DNA from: Bacteroidaceae bacterium
Lineage (GTDB): Bacteria; Bacteroidota; Bacteroidia; Bacteroidales; Barnesiellaceae_A
Length of the DNA stretch: 39,405 nt
NCBI GenBank assembly: GCA_017532725.1
Contig: JAFXIZ010000074.1
Coordinates: 1 to 39,405 of the forward strand
Direction of reading: 5' to 3'
The notes under the pieces are model-generated. The model was not told where the DNA came from. It was given only the letters and a program-made list of their open reading frames with translations, and made no database searches. Below, in pieces: positions 30,653 through 36,630 of the stretch (positions within the stretch are counted from its first letter, which is position 1; every line of letters starts with the position of its first letter). Both the position numbers and the translations under genes were made by a program.

Positions 30653-30688
30653 TAAAGCATTTACAACAACACTTATACATAAATAAAG

Positions 30689-30733
30689 TGGCGTATGCAG
30701 GAACTACAAGGTTCACTACATACGCCACCTTTG
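30689..30733 (+). terminator. Terminator after the M23/LysM gene
   Basis: Arms GTGGCGTATG (30689-30698) and CATACGCCAC (30720-30729), with further pairing inside, are followed by CTTTGTTTT. Between here and 30859 I see no gene. Confidence 0.75.
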
Positions 30734-30859
30734 TTTTGAATTAGATTGTATTCATTCGGACTATTTATGATTAGTCGATTCACTCGTGTGGATTTCGACC
30801 CGCGGCTTCTGTTGTTCGAAGTAGTAGTTATTTAGTATCACTTGTAAATATGACTCTCA

Positions 30860-31234
30860 TTAACCCAATAACATCTTTTTAATCTCTTCTACGTTAATAC
30901 CTTCACATATAATACTCCCATTACGAATCTCATCTAAATAATCTTCATTTTCACAAAGATATTTAGTTACTCCCTGTTCTCTCAATTTTTTTTGATATTT
31001 CAAGATTAACTTTATCATTATATATAAATTCATCAATCTCTTCCGAATCAACTCTCCTCCTAAAGACTCATACAAAACTTCTTGTTCTTCCGTTAGAAAT
31101 TCCACGGTATCACCCAGAATATCTCTTGTCCAATTATGTTCTCCAATAGTCTTTAGTATGAATTGTGAAAATTCTTCACTTTTGGAATAATGTAAAAGTT
31201 TACAGATTATAAACTCTTGTTAGTTTATCCATAT
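30860..31234 (-). pseudogene. Small hypothetical gene broken by a frameshift
   Basis: An AT-rich gene reads from an ATG at 31234 (MDKLTRVYN...) but meets a TAA at 31204-31202. A second frame, without an ATG of its own, runs from just downstream of a stop at about 31224 through to 30860. It contains KLLHYSKSEEFSQF, GEHNWTRDILGDTVEF and EEQEVLYESLGGEL. Skipping one base between 31221 and 31205 joins the two into about 124 residues. The part after 31105 could also start at a GTG and give 81 residues. I do not recognise the family. It is a decaying gene, a sequencing error or a real programmed shift; low GC suggests acquired DNA. Confidence 0.5.
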
Positions 31235-31295
31235 CAAAATTGTATCAGTTTGAATGTATAAATATAATAAAAAATTCCAAGAACTTTAGATAAAA

Positions 31296-32186
31296 CTAAA
31301 ACTGTGCGTGCTCGGCAAAGCCCTCCTCACGGACTTTTGCAATCAGTTTTGTTGGTGCAAGCACCTCAACCGACTTGCCCAATGATAGTAATTTTTGTCT
31401 AAAATCAAACGAAGGGCATAGGCGATACTCGAAAATCGAATACTCCTCGTTGCGCTCCATCTCGACTTGCGTGTGGTGCAGGGGCAGGGTACGCAGATAC
31501 TTGCTCTGCCGCGAATCGACTTTCAATGCCACCGACTCGACATCAAAATCCTCATCGCTGATGATAATGCCGTAGTAGTCCTCAAAGAACTTCTCGGCAT
31601 CGAACTTCTTGGGCAGTTTGAATGTACGCTCGGTTGGCTCCAACGCTTTGATACGGTCGAGGGCGTATATACGCAGTTTATCGCTCATTCCGAGCATATA
31701 CCACCTCTGCTCAAAGAGTTTCACGCAGTACGGTTCCACCTCGAAGGTTGAAGGCTCCTCACGATGAAAACTGTGATAAGTCATCAAGAGAACCACACTC
31801 TCACGCATAGCATCAACAATAGTCGTAAGGTGTTGCTGTCCCGAAGGTACATCTTCGAGGAGGATGCGATTTTTGAGATCTTGGCTTTCGTGCAGAATAT
31901 TATTGACCGAGAAGGTCTGAATCAGCCACTTGCGCATACCCATATTGTCGATGCCTTCACGGTCGGCAATGACATAGCCTCGCTGCGTGCGACTATACTT
32001 TATTTCGATGTCGAACAACTCCTCTACGGCATCGGTATAACGGTGGAATTGACGCTCCGAAAGTTCCTCTCCAAGTCCAAAGTGTGACTCGAAACGGCGT
32101 TGTATATCTTCGAGCGAAATGGGACCTCTATTATAGATGGTTGTTACAAACCATACATAACGGTTGATAAGTCCTGCAGTACTCAT
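31296..32186 (-). CDS. WYL-domain transcriptional regulator (proposed controller of the island)
   Basis: The 296-residue protein has an N-terminal winged-helix-like region (about 1-75), a WYL domain (about 120-195) with the motif RWYMLGMS (Trp162, Tyr163) and YALDRI, and a C-terminal WCX-like domain (about 210-296, FDFRQKLLSLGKSVEVLAP). The layout matches the BrxR/CapW class, dimers that bind inverted repeats and often control defence genes. Its own promoter carries the same inverted repeat as three other promoters of the island, so it is probably autoregulated. Whether it represses or activates is not shown: no consistent -33 box is present at the four promoters, which would fit activation, but overlap with RNA polymerase could equally mean repression. 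Confidence 0.85.
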   Translation of the reverse strand: MSTAGLINRYVWFVTTIYNRGPISLEDIQRRFESHFGLGEELSERQFHRYTDAVEELFDIEIKYSRTQRGYVIADREGIDNMGMRKWLIQTFSVNNILHESQDLKNRILLEDVPSGQQHLTTIVDAMRESVVLLMTYHSFHREEPSTFEVEPYCVKLFEQRWYMLGMSDKLRIYALDRIKALEPTERTFKLPKKFDAEKFFEDYYGIIISDEDFDVESVALKVDSRQSKYLRTLPLHHTQVEMERNEEYSIFEYRLCPSFDFRQKLLSLGKSVEVLAPTKLIAKVREEGFAEHAQF

Positions 32187-32234
32187 AACGGGTTGTATTT
32201 TTAGGTAAAGTTACAAATTTCTCTCCAAACATCG

Positions 32235-32270
32235 CAAAAGTACGACTGAAAACTGACATTTTTTGTCAGT
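32235..32270 (-). promoter_or_regulatory. Operator a and -7 box: WYL gene promoter
   Basis: In the direction of transcription: ACTGACA, 5 bases, TGTCAGT (perfect inverted repeat, 32270-32252), 9 bases, then TACTTTTG (32242-32235). It has the same 36-bp layout as the sites at 33253, 33305 and 36470. The WYL gene starts 48 bases further on. Confidence 0.7.
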
Positions 32271-32331
32271 GTAAATAGGATTAAAAGAAAATGCAGCCGA
32301 TTTCACGACTACATTCTCAATAGTGGATGAA

Positions 32332-32853
32332 CTATCCTATAATCTCCTGTTCTAACTCTGCAACTCGTTTTTCAGCAAGAGCAACCCAAAGGGTAGATTG
32401 CTGAAACTGCTCGGCAGGAATAAACTCCTTGTATCGTTCCAGAAACTCGGGCGTGAAAAGTTCCTCGGCTCGCCAATTATTGATGATTTGCTCCCAATCC
32501 CACTTGTCGGCAAACTTATCGAGCATAGCATAAGTGAGTTTAAGGTTGCTGTTATCCGACAACTCGTGCCAATCCCATTTATTGGCAAACTGTTCGATGT
32601 TTTTGGGTGTAAGCAATCCCTCGGGTGCGTAGCCCGACAACGTGTGCCAATTGATATAATCCTTAAAGTTTTCGAGGATAGATGCTGTCCAGAGCATTTC
32701 GGTATTCTCCGACAAGGCGTCCCAATCAATCAGGCAACGATACTTTCGGAGCAACTCCTCGTTCCACTTAAACTGGCGCGATAACTTTTTCCACGCCTCT
32801 TTGTTTAACTCCTGCGACACAATAGCATCGCCAAATGTTCTTTCGATTACCAT
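32332..32853 (-). CDS. Hypothetical protein with tandem Trp-rich repeats of about 26 residues
   Basis: The 173-residue protein contains about five repeats of roughly 26 residues with the core F-x3-W-x-W-x2-L-S-x-N: WNEELLRKYRCLIDWDALS, LENFKDYINWHTLSGY, IEQFANKWDWHELSDNSN, LDKFADKWDWEQIINN and a degenerate last copy. Regular spacing of tryptophans suggests an alpha-helical solenoid used for protein binding. No signal peptide or membrane segment, so cytoplasmic. It lies 21 bases after the 119-residue gene, so it is probably under operator d. I do not recognise its function. Confidence 0.65.
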   Translation of the reverse strand: MVIERTFGDAIVSQELNKEAWKKLSRQFKWNEELLRKYRCLIDWDALSENTEMLWTASILENFKDYINWHTLSGYAPEGLLTPKNIEQFANKWDWHELSDNSNLKLTYAMLDKFADKWDWEQIINNWRAEELFTPEFLERYKEFIPAEQFQQSTLWVALAEKRVAELEQEIIG

Positions 32854-32874
32854 AATTCAAAATGTTTTATAGGG

Positions 32875-33234
32875 TTAAATAGATGTTGCTGCCTCATATA
32901 CATCGTGCAGAAATCGCTCGGTGTGTTCTGTGTTATCGCGAGGGTCGTAGCGATAAGGAACAGCCTCCCAATCGCTGTCAAAATTGCGTGCAGAGTGTAT
33001 TCCACTCAATACTCTCTCGACAGCCACCTCATACTCGAAAATATAGTAGCAGCGAGCGACGATATATGCCTCACGGCTCATACCCTTCGGACAAAGGGCT
33101 ATATCCTTAAACAGATATGCATAAAACTCCTCAAAACTATCAAACGCCATATCGTAGGAACTCTCCGGCTCAAACCAATATCGCAGTGCTGCACCGCGGT
33201 ATTTCTCAATAAGTTTTTGTTCGTTTGTCATCAT
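32875..33234 (-). CDS. Hypothetical 119-residue protein of the WYL island
   Basis: I do not recognise this protein. It has no signal peptide and is acidic and aromatic-rich (YRGAALRYWFEPESSYDMAF, FEEFYAYLFKDIA, YIVARCYYIFEYEVAVERV), probably an alpha-helical cytoplasmic protein. A longer reading would start at 33279, but that lies upstream of the predicted transcription start near 33248 and inside the operator, so I chose the ATG at 33234 (another ATG follows directly). It is the first gene of a two-gene unit with the Trp-repeat gene. Confidence 0.6.
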   Translation of the reverse strand: MMTNEQKLIEKYRGAALRYWFEPESSYDMAFDSFEEFYAYLFKDIALCPKGMSREAYIVARCYYIFEYEVAVERVLSGIHSARNFDSDWEAVPYRYDPRDNTEHTERFLHDVYEAATSI

Positions 33235-33252
33235 TGTTCTCGATTTACGGTG

Positions 33253-33288
33253 CAAAGTTGAGAAATCACACTGCCACATTGCGTCAGT
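33253..33288 (-). promoter_or_regulatory. Operator d and -7 box: promoter of the 119-residue gene
   Basis: In the direction of transcription: ACTGACG, 5 bases, TGGCAGT (33288-33270), 9 bases, then CAACTTTG (33260-33253), a weaker -7 box. Each arm differs from the consensus by one base. It is divergent from operator b, 16 bp away. Confidence 0.6.
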
Positions 33289-33304
33289 GTAAAAATATTT
33301 TCAC

Positions 33305-33340
33305 ACTGACAGCCTTTGTCACTCTCAAATCATACCTTCG
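33305..33340 (+). promoter_or_regulatory. Operator b and -7 box: promoter of the 255-residue gene
   Basis: ACTGACA, 5 bases, TGTCACT (33305-33323), 9 bases, then TACCTTCG (33333-33340). The start codon is 18 bases further on. One arm base differs from the perfect repeat at operator a. Confidence 0.65.
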
Positions 33341-33358
33341 CAGGAAAAAGATAAAATT

Positions 33359-34126
33359 ATGAGACGAGAACCCTATGCCCGAGCAACCGACGTGTTGTAT
33401 AAACTCACCACAATCTACTATCAAGGTAAATCCGAAGCACGCTATCCTCGATTTGAGGTACGGCGCGAGGTTACGGGCTACTTCCACTCGTTGGAGGATG
33501 CCGAAAGGCGTATTCGCAAATATGTAACAGGTGAGGAGAAGGCCGAATCTTCCGGTAAGTACCACTCGGATTACGACTACTATTATGGTTTTGTGGTTGA
33601 TGAGATACCATTTGATTGGCACCTTACGGGCGATGCGCAACATACTCGCATCTACTTGGAAGATGGAACATTTCTGCACGAAACCAAAGTCTCGGCACTA
33701 TACAACAACGATTTGGGTGGAAGACTTGAACCATTTGATGGGCGACCCAAAGAGGAGTGCCGTTTCGATGTGGGCGACTTGGTTGAGGTGCTGTCGGGCG
33801 ATACGGTATCGTTGGAGATAGTATATAGTCAGCCACCGACTCCGGCACAAGCCGCAGAGATTCGCCGCAGAGTGCGTGAGGCGTTTCAAAAGAACTGCGT
33901 TGGAATCACAGATAGCGAGTTAAATGAGGAGATGGATTATGCACTTGATATAACGGACGACTCCTATATCACTCTCGATGGTGACGAAGGGTATATGCCC
34001 AATCACTCGCATCCCTATGTCACAAGCCTTTTCCCTTTTCGTCGCAAGGTGCCATACTTACTGCGCAAGAAATTGGAACGAGGCTTGGAGATAGCCCTAC
34101 AAGAGAACGAGACCGGCCTATGTTAA
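33359..34126 (+). CDS. Hypothetical 255-residue protein of the WYL island
   Basis: I do not recognise the family. The protein is cytoplasmic in appearance, with no signal peptide. It has a basic N-terminus, an acidic Tyr-rich middle (SDYDYYYGFVVDEIPFDW), a strand-rich FDVGDLVEVLSGDTVSLEIVY segment that could be a small SH3/KOW-like barrel, a helical region (AAEIRRRVREAFQKNC) and a basic C-terminus (RRKVPYLLRKKLERGLE). It has its own operator-bearing promoter, divergent from that of the 119-residue gene, and ends 18 bases before the convergent nuclease-like gene. Confidence 0.6.
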   Translation: MRREPYARATDVLYKLTTIYYQGKSEARYPRFEVRREVTGYFHSLEDAERRIRKYVTGEEKAESSGKYHSDYDYYYGFVVDEIPFDWHLTGDAQHTRIYLEDGTFLHETKVSALYNNDLGGRLEPFDGRPKEECRFDVGDLVEVLSGDTVSLEIVYSQPPTPAQAAEIRRRVREAFQKNCVGITDSELNEEMDYALDITDDSYITLDGDEGYMPNHSHPYVTSLFPFRRKVPYLLRKKLERGLEIALQENETGLC

Positions 34127-34144
34127 GGGCAGGTCTCGTTTTAG

Positions 34145-35368
34145 TTATTGCTTTGTTAATGGCATAATGGCATCAATGAGTGCAATTAGGTCGGGCAGGA
34201 CAGATTTGCTATCAGGATATCTCCAGCAATACCAAGACGAACTGTTGTTTTCCCAACCACCGATATATGATGTGGCTTCTTCAATCATATTGTTTATATT
34301 AGCGTCTTTGCCATCTGCGCAATATACGCCATAGAATATATTTGTCTCTCTTTCAATACAAATACTGATAGGGTGCTTACAAACTTCTAAATTGATTCCG
34401 ACAAAAATATCCTTTCCTCTATTCCCTAATGTTATATTATCTTTCAATTTAGGATAATGCTGAATCATAGCCTCCTTCCACTCTTTGAACATCTGTTTCT
34501 CCACTTTATCTTTTAGTGCTCCCAAATGGTTTAACACCTTGTTGATATCGTCTTGATATTGACGAATGGTACGATAATCATCATACATCTGACCTGTTAA
34601 ACCAAGTTTTTCCTTAATACACTCTTCTACTTTCATATTTAACTCCTTATCTATTGTCCTCAAACCAAAAATGCCTTCTAAATAGTCTATGTATTGTTCC
34701 ACTGCACAGCGTAATATATAATCCTTATCCGGCAATATAGGAACGATACGTTCTTTCAGCCACGGTAGAACATCATCTTTAAATGATAAATTCATATACC
34801 GTTGTTCATACTCCGGCTTGTATGTGCCCCAAGATTGTTCTGCCGGCTCTGTGCCTTGTTGTGATAGATAGACTACAAATATTTGCTCATCTGTAAATCC
34901 ATTTGCTTTGGTACAGTCGATGTATCTTGAGAGTTGTGCCGCTTGGTCAGTGGCGTTATAAACCTTATTCTCGAAAATAATGGCATATCCTCCAACTCTA
35001 TCGCGTACCCAAAGGTCTATTCGACACTGCTCCTGTGTAATTAGTGGGCTCTTGATGTATATGGAATGATATTCGTTATTTTGTTCAGCGATATACCTCA
35101 ACAGCGATTGTAGAACTACATACTCCCCTGATAGCGATTTGTATTGCAATAATTTACATAGTATGCGACTATGTCCATTTTCGTTAATATGCAGTTCGTC
35201 AATAATATTGAGGTGATAAGGTAATAGATGTCTATTCTGTTCGATGCAACGCTTAACTTCTACAGCCAATTCCATTACAAAATTGATTTCAGACGCCTGC
35301 TGTTTTGCATCTTCGCGAACAATATCATCGATAAAGTCGAGTATATGAGATATTCCATTGTTATCCAT
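34145..35368 (-). CDS. PD-(D/E)XK nuclease-superfamily protein (PDDEXK_4-like)
   Basis: The 407-residue protein has the core of PD-(D/E)XK nucleases: an N-terminal E-x2-HS element (Glu63, NENGHSRILCKLL), then Asp118 in RIDLWV and Glu133-x-Lys135 in IIFENKVY, followed by the QAAQLSRY helix (Gln142-Tyr149) typical of PDDEXK_4 proteins. These residues would bind metal and cut DNA, but many members of this group have no proven activity. The C-terminal half (about 230-407) is helical and unassigned. It lies 36 bases after the 346-residue gene, so both should be transcribed from operator c. Confidence 0.7.
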   Translation of the reverse strand: MDNNGISHILDFIDDIVREDAKQQASEINFVMELAVEVKRCIEQNRHLLPYHLNIIDELHINENGHSRILCKLLQYKSLSGEYVVLQSLLRYIAEQNNEYHSIYIKSPLITQEQCRIDLWVRDRVGGYAIIFENKVYNATDQAAQLSRYIDCTKANGFTDEQIFVVYLSQQGTEPAEQSWGTYKPEYEQRYMNLSFKDDVLPWLKERIVPILPDKDYILRCAVEQYIDYLEGIFGLRTIDKELNMKVEECIKEKLGLTGQMYDDYRTIRQYQDDINKVLNHLGALKDKVEKQMFKEWKEAMIQHYPKLKDNITLGNRGKDIFVGINLEVCKHPISICIERETNIFYGVYCADGKDANINNMIEEATSYIGGWENNSSSWYCWRYPDSKSVLPDLIALIDAIMPLTKQ

Positions 35369-35404
35369 TTCCTTGAGTCGTAGTCTATCGCAAATCTAAT
35401 AATT

Positions 35405-36445
35405 TTATTTCATTCTCACAAACTCATACAACTCACGCAAGTAGTCGTTGATATTTTCATCCAAGTAGTAACAATCCTTTTGTGGGCGCCAGCGATAGTG
35501 TATTTCGTCAGAGAGAGGCTCTCTCCATTGCTCCACGCCCGGCGTGTCTGCCGATAGGTCTTCCAAATAATCATTGAAATACAAGCGAGTGCGATTGGCA
35601 ATCTCCTGCCCAAGTCGGATATGTGGCGCACGTTTTTGCTCAGCCTCGCGCACAAACTTATCCCTAAACTCATCAAACGAGCAACGCTCCCACCATTTCC
35701 ATCCACTGCCGTCTTGCTCCTCCCAATGCTGATGCTTAACTTTTACCTCTACGCAAAAGTCGTTCATTCGCAGAATATCGGGAATGGAATATGGCTTATG
35801 GTCGCTCAAGTCGTGGATGGCGTGGCAGATGCAGATATGGCTCAACTTGTCAACTGCAGGTTGCACGGACTCATACCAAGTTGTGCCATCGTGGAAGTCG
35901 TTATGTATCCCTAACTCTTCGCGTGTTATATCGGAGCGATAGTTGGCAGGCGAGAGGAGACACCAACAATGCTCTACCTCCTCCAATTTCAGATGCTTGC
36001 AAGTGTAGAGCCAATCAATAACACCAAACATCTCGTAAAAATCCGAGCCGTAGTAGGTATCATTCGCCATTGGCAAAACAGAACTGTACCCATTTACCGA
36101 AAATCGGAGTGAACCCTCAACCTCCACATCGTCATCAAAATTGGTGTCGTAGGTAGTAGTTGCCATCTTGCGATAGAGCGCCTCGGTACGAGCATACATC
36201 TTCTGCGTGAGGTTGTACAAACGATTGTTCACCTGCTCCATACGCGCCACCTCCTCTGGCGTAGCAACAAACATCTTATCAAGCAGATGTTTGCGCTTCC
36301 AAATTAACCTTTCGACCTGCTCGCATTTGCGTTGCGAACGAGTCCACCCTATATTAAAATCCACATTTCGGCCTGTGATGGCAAGAATTTTCTCTTCTAC
36401 TTTCTGCACTTGTTCTCGCAGACGGGTATAATCTTTCTGTTTCAT
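35405..36445 (-). CDS. Hypothetical 346-residue protein of the WYL island
   Basis: I do not recognise the family. An N-terminal coiled coil (about 1-110, rich in K, E, R and Q; REQVQKVEEKILAITG) precedes a mixed domain with many aromatic and cysteine residues (CWCLLSPANYRSDI, HICICHAIHDLSDH) and a Trp-rich basic part near the C-terminus. A longer reading begins at 36523 but passes through operator c; the ATG at 36445 is about 20 bases from the predicted transcription start, as for the other island genes. First gene of the unit with the nuclease-like gene. Confidence 0.6.
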   Translation of the reverse strand: MKQKDYTRLREQVQKVEEKILAITGRNVDFNIGWTRSQRKCEQVERLIWKRKHLLDKMFVATPEEVARMEQVNNRLYNLTQKMYARTEALYRKMATTTYDTNFDDDVEVEGSLRFSVNGYSSVLPMANDTYYGSDFYEMFGVIDWLYTCKHLKLEEVEHCWCLLSPANYRSDITREELGIHNDFHDGTTWYESVQPAVDKLSHICICHAIHDLSDHKPYSIPDILRMNDFCVEVKVKHQHWEEQDGSGWKWWERCSFDEFRDKFVREAEQKRAPHIRLGQEIANRTRLYFNDYLEDLSADTPGVEQWREPLSDEIHYRWRPQKDCYYLDENINDYLRELYEFVRMK

Positions 36446-36469
36446 AAATAAAGCAGTATGACTTTTCTG

Positions 36470-36505
36470 CAAAGTTATGGCAGCAAACTGACAAAGTATG
36501 ACAGT
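36470..36505 (-). promoter_or_regulatory. Operator c and -7 box: promoter of the 346-residue gene and nuclease-like gene
   Basis: In the direction of transcription: ACTGTCA, 5 bases, TGTCAGT (36505-36487), 9 bases, then TAACTTTG (36477-36470). One arm base differs from the perfect repeat. Confidence 0.7.
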
Positions 36506-36630
36506 TTTAAATTTTAAAGACAAAAGAGTGAAATATTAAATAGTCTTTTAATCGTATAAGGTAACACTGATTGACCTTAATTACTACATAGAAGATTATA
36601 TGATAGGAGTCAAAATAGAATTTAAAATAT

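What the first reader, a model, noticed from the sequence alone, without database searches (positions are those of the whole stretch)
32235..36505. Four promoters share an identical 36-bp operator-promoter layout, linked to a WYL regulator
At 32270-32235 (-), 33288-33253 (-), 33305-33340 (+) and 36505-36470 (-) the same arrangement occurs: a 7-base inverted repeat close to ACTGACA-N5-TGTCAGT, exactly 9 bases, then a TAnnTTTG/TTCG-type -7 box. The repeats differ by at most one base per arm. The sites control the WYL gene itself and, with downstream genes, all six intact genes of the island; I saw no other copies in the window. This looks like a complete WYL-controlled system.
Basis: partly seen in the sequence, partly recalled or inferred. 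Interest (0 to 1): 0.85.

Follow-up and report, generated by a model that had tools for sequence, protein, structure and literature searches.

The report
WYL-switch promoters of a mobile island
Every gene of a small island that jumped into this gut bacterium sits behind the same rigid control site, very probably read by the island's own WYL switch protein, and the spacing of that site matches the ones that known DNA-damage switches use to turn genes on in unrelated bacteria.

Summary
Four 19-bp palindromes lie exactly 9 bp before a Bacteroidota -7 box, and they are the only sites within 2 mismatches in the 2.13-Mb genome. One correction: the box of the 33288 site is CAACTTTG, not TAnnTTTG. The four promoters can serve all six genes of a ~6-kb insertion that is absent from the closest same-genus genome. 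The island was acquired horizontally: its WYL protein is 67-89% identical to those of 15 ruminant-gut Rikenellaceae-type genomes, whose RecG is only 51-55% identical to this one's.

In those relatives nearly every operon near the WYL gene starts with the same promoter; spacing was 9 bp in 53 of 53 sites. The geometry recurs with other half-site letters at more distant WYL genes and at CRISPR-Cas operons directly downstream of WYL genes. None of 58 such promoters has a -33 element (ordinary promoters: 52 of 298). The 19+9 geometry equals that of the DriD promoters and of PafBC's RecA-NDp motif, both proven WYL activators.

Best reading: a self-regulated homodimeric WYL activator that replaces -33 recognition, perhaps triggered by ssDNA, and switches on an accessory, possibly anti-phage, island. 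Binding, activation sign and signal are inferred, not shown.

The parts
32235..32270 (-). Operator-promoter A: 19-bp palindrome 32270-32252, 9-bp spacer, -7 box TACTTTTG 32242-32235; in front of the WYL gene (autoregulation)
33253..33288 (-). Operator-promoter B: palindrome 33288-33270, 9 bp, box CAACTTTG 33260-33253; in front of P0003-P0002
33305..33340 (+). Operator-promoter C: palindrome 33305-33323, 9 bp, box TACCTTCG 33333-33340; divergent from B (palindromes 16 bp apart); in front of P0004
36470..36505 (-). Operator-promoter D: palindrome 36505-36487, 9 bp, box TAACTTTG 36477-36470; in front of P0006-P0005
31296..32186 (-). WYL regulator P0001 (296 aa): winged HTH + WYL (PF13280) + WCX (PF25583); closest solved structures DriD and PafBC; C-terminal tail YKFKVYKK of relatives missing
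32332..32853 (-). P0002 (173 aa), W-rich repeat protein of unknown function; orthologues 70-77% behind the same operator in L021, L022, L023, L025
32875..33234 (-). P0003 (119 aa), no family, no relative in fetched WYL loci; inserted between promoter B and P0002
33359..34126 (+). P0004 (255 aa), no relative in 247 genomes of the order
34145..35368 (-). P0005 (407 aa), PDDEXK_4 nuclease family, PADLOC candidate PDC-S26; homologue (42%) beside another WYL gene (L148)
35405..36445 (-). P0006 (346 aa), conserved island core protein of unknown function (73-85% identical in 8 relatives, behind the same operator in most)
30653..36630 (.). Extent of the insertion: the closest same-genus genome G008 (L144) has the M23 peptidase and GNAT genes adjacent, 79 bp between the matched ends
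30688..30766 (-). Relic of the island's far end (89% to L016:14916-14994, just behind the conserved end gene c2); 30776-30827 matches relatives of island ORF c7

Best explanation
The four sites are the promoters of one regulon controlled by the island's own WYL protein (P0001). A P0001 homodimer binds the 19-bp palindrome (nnnGnCA-N5-TGnCnnn). Its promoter-proximal half-site lies where PafB contacts its -26 motif, 9 bp before the -7 box, and the palindrome takes the place of the missing -33 element. RNA polymerase with the housekeeping sigma factor therefore starts well only when the activated WYL dimer stands in for -33 recognition (sigma adaptation or DriD-type contacts). The WYL domain probably senses single-stranded nucleic acid made during DNA damage or phage attack. 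Activation raises the WYL protein itself (positive feedback) and the five accessory proteins, including a PDDEXK_4 nuclease, of a horizontally acquired island that is probably anti-phage or a DNA-stress cargo. Shown: sites, spacing, missing -33 element, uniqueness in the genome, insertion, conservation in relatives, equal geometry in DriD/PafBC promoters and at WYL-linked CRISPR operons. Inferred: binding by P0001, activation rather than repression, the ssDNA signal, the biological role.
For: (1) Sites unique to the island in the whole genome. (2) Spacing 9 in 53/53 palindrome/-7-box pairs of window and relatives and none at 3-8 or 10-19; over all loci the >=6/7-palindrome histogram peaks at k=9 (38, every other k <=3). 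(3) More distant WYL loci (about 30-50% identity) use other letters in the same 19+9 frame: TATGCCA, CACGACA, AACGTCA, GCTGCCA, TACGACA. (4) Unbiased scan of 119 Bacteroidales genomes: 22 sites at spacing 9 against 1 for the reversed pattern; at spacing 10, 4 against 4. (5) Five of those promoters precede Cas8b, Cas6 or Cas10d genes, four of them with a CRISPR-type WYL gene directly upstream. (6) No TTG 19-21 nt before the -7 box in 58 such promoters, against 52/298 ordinary ones (p=6e-5). (7) PafBC consensus tTGTCRgtg-8nt-TAnnnT (PMC5656591) has the same half-site and 9-bp spacing. (8) DriD consensus ATACGAC-N7-GTCGTAT is the same 19-bp frame, and the didA and CCNA_03891 promoters printed in PMC12340889 have the site 9 nt before CA with G two bases upstream, as for the reported G-14; the bapE promoter fits too, but that register was read off by eye because the script scored other windows equally. 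(9) P0001 matches DriD and PafBC best by sequence and fold.
Against: No binding or expression data. WYL repressors exist (CapW, BrxR; Sll7009 as cited in PMC6789036). Only 12 of 72 distant WYL genes have such a site before their own ORF (other genes 7/172, p=0.0026). The 53 island sites are partly copies of one another by descent, so they are not independent. PafBC's motif has one conserved half-site only. Even ordinary promoters show a -33 TTG in just 17%, so its absence is suggestive, not decisive.
Confidence: 0.72

Rival explanations
1. WYL repressor: P0001 sits on the palindrome in uninfected cells, blocks RNA polymerase and keeps the island silent; a ligand bound to the WYL domain releases it (CapW/BrxR mode).
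For: CapW and BrxR, WYL regulators of defence systems, are homodimers that bind palindromes and repress (PMC9122588, PMC9122601); the window palindrome would overlap RNA polymerase; island content fits defence.
Against: CapW sites overlap the -10 box and BrxR's site lies downstream of it, not upstream as here. A repressor has no need of an invariant 9-bp spacing or of promoters without a -33 element. P0001 matches DriD/PafBC, not CapW/BrxR, by sequence.
Confidence: 0.2
2. The sites belong to another regulator or an alternative sigma factor; the WYL gene is merely one of the targets.
For: Direct binding is not shown; 60 of 72 distant WYL genes lack an own site; in relatives some sites with other half-site letters lie away from the island.
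Against: The island was transferred with gene and sites together and the host has no other site. The same frame stands next to WYL genes at 30-50% identity and next to CRISPR-linked WYL genes. The -7 box is that of the primary sigma factor (PMC7366714). The frame equals the target site of DriD.
Confidence: 0.05
3. Promoter cassettes copied by descent: the shared layout only reflects duplication, with no functional constraint.
For: Several relatives carry nearly identical copies, such as ...TGGCAGAgaggggtttTACTTTTG.
Against: Spacer letters and half-site letters vary widely while the spacing does not; unrelated genomes in the order show the same spacing preference.
Confidence: 0.03

Closest known systems
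DriD regulon of Caulobacter crescentus (WYL activator, PMC12340889)
   Same: 19-bp palindrome frame nnnGnC-N7-GnCnnn; 9 nt between palindrome and the start of the -10 element in the printed promoters; poor -35; several promoters at one fixed distance; wHTH-WYL-WCX protein; best fold match
   Different: Half-site letters TACGAC instead of ACTGAC; Caulobacter -10 instead of TAnnTTTG; chromosomal DNA-damage genes instead of a mobile island; ssDNA sensing proven there, untested here
PafBC / RecA-NDp promoters of mycobacteria (PMC5656591, PMC11804915)
   Same: Half-site TGTCRGT exactly 9 nt before TAnnnT; PafBC stands in for -35 recognition (sigma adaptation); WYL+WCX protein; best sequence match in the PDB
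   Different: PafBC is a heterodimer and only PafB contacts DNA, so one half-site; here a palindrome and, by inference, a homodimer; other phylum and other -7 box
SiwR of Mycobacterium smegmatis (PMC10693628)
   Same: Homodimeric WYL activator, 19-bp imperfect palindrome upstream of the -10 motif, regulator next to its targets
   Different: Sequence and exact spacing of that palindrome are not printed in the text read, so the frame could not be compared
CapW and BrxR (WYL repressors of CBASS and BREX)
   Same: WYL homodimers on palindromes in defence loci, self-regulated
   Different: Operators overlap or follow the -10; repressors; weaker fold match, no sequence match
CRISPR-associated WYL regulators of Bacteroidales (PADLOC PDLC01457/01652)
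   Same: Same 19+9+TAnnTTTG promoter directly between WYL gene and cas operon
   Different: Half-site TTGACA/TGTCAA; proteins distant from P0001 (a profile of the P0001 family misses them at E 1e-5)

Membership tests
WYL transcriptional regulators (wHTH-WYL-WCX class) | N-terminal winged HTH, WYL domain, WCX domain | tested here: met
   PF13280 E=3.3e-15 and PF25583 E=2.2e-08; model with HTH-like 3-73, SH3-like 131-188, WCX 217-290 (mean pLDDT 70)
PafBC/DriD-type WYL activators | Operator at a fixed distance upstream of the -10/-7 box, proximal half-site 9 nt from TA | tested here: met
   53/53 at 9 bp; PafBC consensus and DriD promoters give the same distance
PafBC/DriD-type WYL activators | Target promoters lack a usable -35/-33 element | tested here: met
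   0/58 with TTG at spacer 19-21 against 52/298 ordinary promoters
PafBC/DriD-type WYL activators | Transcription rises on DNA damage and depends on the WYL protein | not testable with these tools
   needs expression experiments
PafBC/DriD-type WYL activators | WYL domain binds ssDNA | not testable with these tools
   conserved R-x-Y-x-L-D-R strand present but similar strands occur in many WYL domains
PafBC proper | PafB-PafC heterodimer, non-palindromic site | tested here: not met
   single WYL gene in the island, palindromic site
CapW/BrxR repressors | Operator overlapping or downstream of the -10 box | tested here: not met
   operator lies wholly upstream of the -7 box (for the references)
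Anti-phage defence island | Known defence genes present | tested here: inconclusive
   window: PDC-S26/PDDEXK_4 only; relatives: GmrSD, PLD, PtuA/AriA-like ATPase, FtsK/mads_8-like; no defence shown

The most novel reading that the evidence does not exclude
WYL activators in at least three phyla share one promoter grammar: a 19-bp nnnGnCA-N5-TGnCnnn site exactly 9 bp before the -10/-7 element replaces -35/-33 recognition. In Bacteroidales, paralogous WYL proteins use this grammar with different half-site letters as insulated channels that switch on mobile accessory islands and CRISPR-Cas operons when ssDNA appears.
Probability: 0.45. Interest if true: 0.8.

Novelty: new variant of a known kind. 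Interest (0 to 1): 0.64.

Why it matters
If right, it gives a sequence rule (19+9+TAnnTTTG) that finds WYL-controlled genes directly in Bacteroidota genomes, where a search of open papers for 'WYL domain' plus 'Bacteroides' found none on WYL-controlled transcription. It predicts which accessory, mobile and CRISPR genes are held back until a damage- or invasion-type signal, and it ties mobile islands and CRISPR-Cas in a dominant gut phylum to the same class of switch as mycobacterial and Caulobacter DNA-damage responses. The half-site variety (ACTGAC, TTTGAC, TGTGCC, TACGAC and others) offers a ready set for working out a WYL recognition code and for building orthogonal inducible promoters.

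Tried and rejected
Repressor model as first choice: lowered because of site position, fixed spacing and lack of a -33 element. AlphaFold of P0006 gave mean pLDDT 40 and was not used. The PD-x-EVK stretch of P0006 as a PD-(D/E)XK motif was dropped because EVK is EVT in L016 and L028. Viral contig scans for P0006 and P0004 found no relative. An excess of TTG 14 nt before the box in 'ordinary' promoters turned out to be mostly degenerate island operators plus sites before WYL genes. Direct repeats at the island ends: only an 11-bp A/T-rich match, not claimed. A link between recognition-helix residues (RTFQRD with nnCGnC sites; RTFHNH/RQFHRY with nnTGnC sites) is suggestive but rests on few, related proteins.
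Full report
Check of the observation. The four sites are present as described. In the window 7 places match the palindrome at <=3 mismatches against 1.72 expected and no shuffle reaches 7; in the whole 2.13-Mb genome (93% complete) the only matches at <=2 mismatches are these four, and the composite of palindrome, 9 bp and box is found at <=1 mismatch only there. A looser half-site pattern adds only one weak place elsewhere. The single correction is the -7 box of the 33288 site, CAACTTTG; orthologous promoters in L021, L022, L023 and L025 carry the same C.

What is around it. The region 30653-36630 is an insertion. In the closest same-genus genome (G008, GlyA 98%, M23 87%) the M23 and GNAT genes are neighbours with 79 bp between the matched ends. 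The WYL gene's closest relatives are in ruminant-gut Rikenellaceae-type genomes (67-89% identity over L016-L030), whose RecG is only 51-55% identical to the window's, so the island came in horizontally. A relic of the donor island's far end remains at 30688-30766, and the WYL protein has lost the C-terminal tail seen in L016-L030; the window island is thus a shortened form. Genes: P0005 is a PDDEXK_4 protein and PADLOC candidate PDC-S26, with a homologue beside another WYL gene in L148; P0002 and P0006 are island core proteins without known function; P0003 and P0004 have no relatives found.

Relatives. Around the WYL gene in L016-L030 nearly every operon begins with the same operator-promoter. 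The typical order is tyrosine integrase (in four loci), P0006 family, P0002 family, an 80-aa membrane protein, WYL, variable cassettes, and at the far end c2, a protein with DNA polymerase III alpha pieces. Cassettes include GmrSD, PLD-family, UDG-like, RecA/DnaB-like ATPase, stand-alone FtsK motor and FtsK gamma, SprT-like metalloprotease and an AAA_21 ATPase.

Geometry. Spacing between palindrome and TAnnTTTG is 9 in 53 of 53 cases, with none at 3-8 or 10-19. More distant WYL loci show other half-site letters in the same frame, with 10 sites at k=9 against 0-1 in block shuffles. Across all loci the k histogram is 38 at 9 and at most 3 elsewhere. In the relatives' genomes other sets exist outside the island: TTTGACA/TGTCAAA before a RelA/SpoT-like HD protein and, as ATTGACA, a HIRAN-like protein (my reading of the translations), and TGTGCCA/TGGCACA before another WYL gene and an ATPase of the c9 family. 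An unbiased scan of 119 genomes of the order gave 22 sites at spacing 9 against 1 with the reversed pattern, and 4 against 4 at spacing 10. Five of these lie before Cas8b, Cas6 or Cas10d genes; in four of the five a CRISPR-type WYL gene lies directly upstream of the site.

Mechanism. Ordinary promoters in the same loci show the -33 TTG at 19-20 nt before the -7 box; none of 58 operator promoters does (52/298 against 0/58 at 19-21 nt, p=6e-5), and the fixed letters of the palindrome exclude it. PafBC's RecA-NDp consensus, tTGTCRgtg-8 nt-TAnnnT (PMC5656591), has the same half-site at the same distance. DriD's consensus ATACGAC-N7-GTCGTAT (PMC12340889) is the same 19-bp frame; in the didA and CCNA_03891 promoters printed there the site is followed after 9 nt by CAA, with G two bases before, in line with the paper's conserved G-14. 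For bapE I read TATGTTCTCTTCTGGCGCA, 9 nt, CAAG by eye; the script's scoring did not single it out. PafBC and DriD are structurally proven activators. P0001 matches these two, not CapW or BrxR, by sequence, and DriD and PafBC rank above BrxR and CapW by fold. I therefore favour activation over repression at about 0.72 to 0.20.

What is not shown. Binding by P0001, the sign of regulation, the ligand and the role of the cargo are inferences. Only 12 of 72 distant WYL genes have a site before their own ORF (7 of 172 other genes, p=0.0026), so self-regulation is recurrent but not general. The island sites are related by descent and are not independent counts. The L016-L031 relatives are, by their record titles, metagenome-assembled or uncultured.

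Known or new. WYL activators with fixed operator-promoter geometry are known (PafBC, DriD, SiwR). New here, as far as the held papers show, are the Bacteroidota form with palindrome plus TAnnTTTG, its use by every operon of a mobile island, its parallel half-site versions, and its presence at CRISPR-Cas operons. Verdict: new variant of a known kind.

Noticed in passing
L151, L156, L158, L165, L168 and L169-L173 (other Bacteroidales families): The same 19+9+TAnnTTTG promoter (half-site TTGACA/TGTCAA) stands directly before Cas8b, Cas6 or Cas10d genes; in four of the five a CRISPR-type WYL gene is immediately upstream of the site.
   Followed up: partly
L113-L124 (G062, G063, G065, G067, G071): A second genome-wide set with half-site TTTGACA/TGTCAAA in the Rikenellaceae relatives, before a RelA/SpoT-like HD hydrolase, a HIRAN-like protein and small zinc-ribbon-like proteins; sometimes two sites in tandem.
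   Followed up: partly
L016-L028, cluster c2 (for example L020:5514-6596): A 360-aa protein at the far end of the relatives' islands made of pieces of DNA polymerase III alpha (DNA_pol3_alpha and finger domains).
   Followed up: no
L025:10528-10779 and L019:6955-7674: Stand-alone FtsK gamma domain and stand-alone FtsK motor genes as island cassettes.
   Followed up: no
window 31296-31300: The window WYL protein stops before the conserved C-terminal tail (YKFKVYKK) present in the L016-L030 orthologues; whether it is fully active is unknown.
   Followed up: partly
G000:C63:2287-3150 (L098): A second WYL gene in the host genome (37% identity; genes of similar identity in all eight same-genus genomes searched) with no such site before it.
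   Followed up: no
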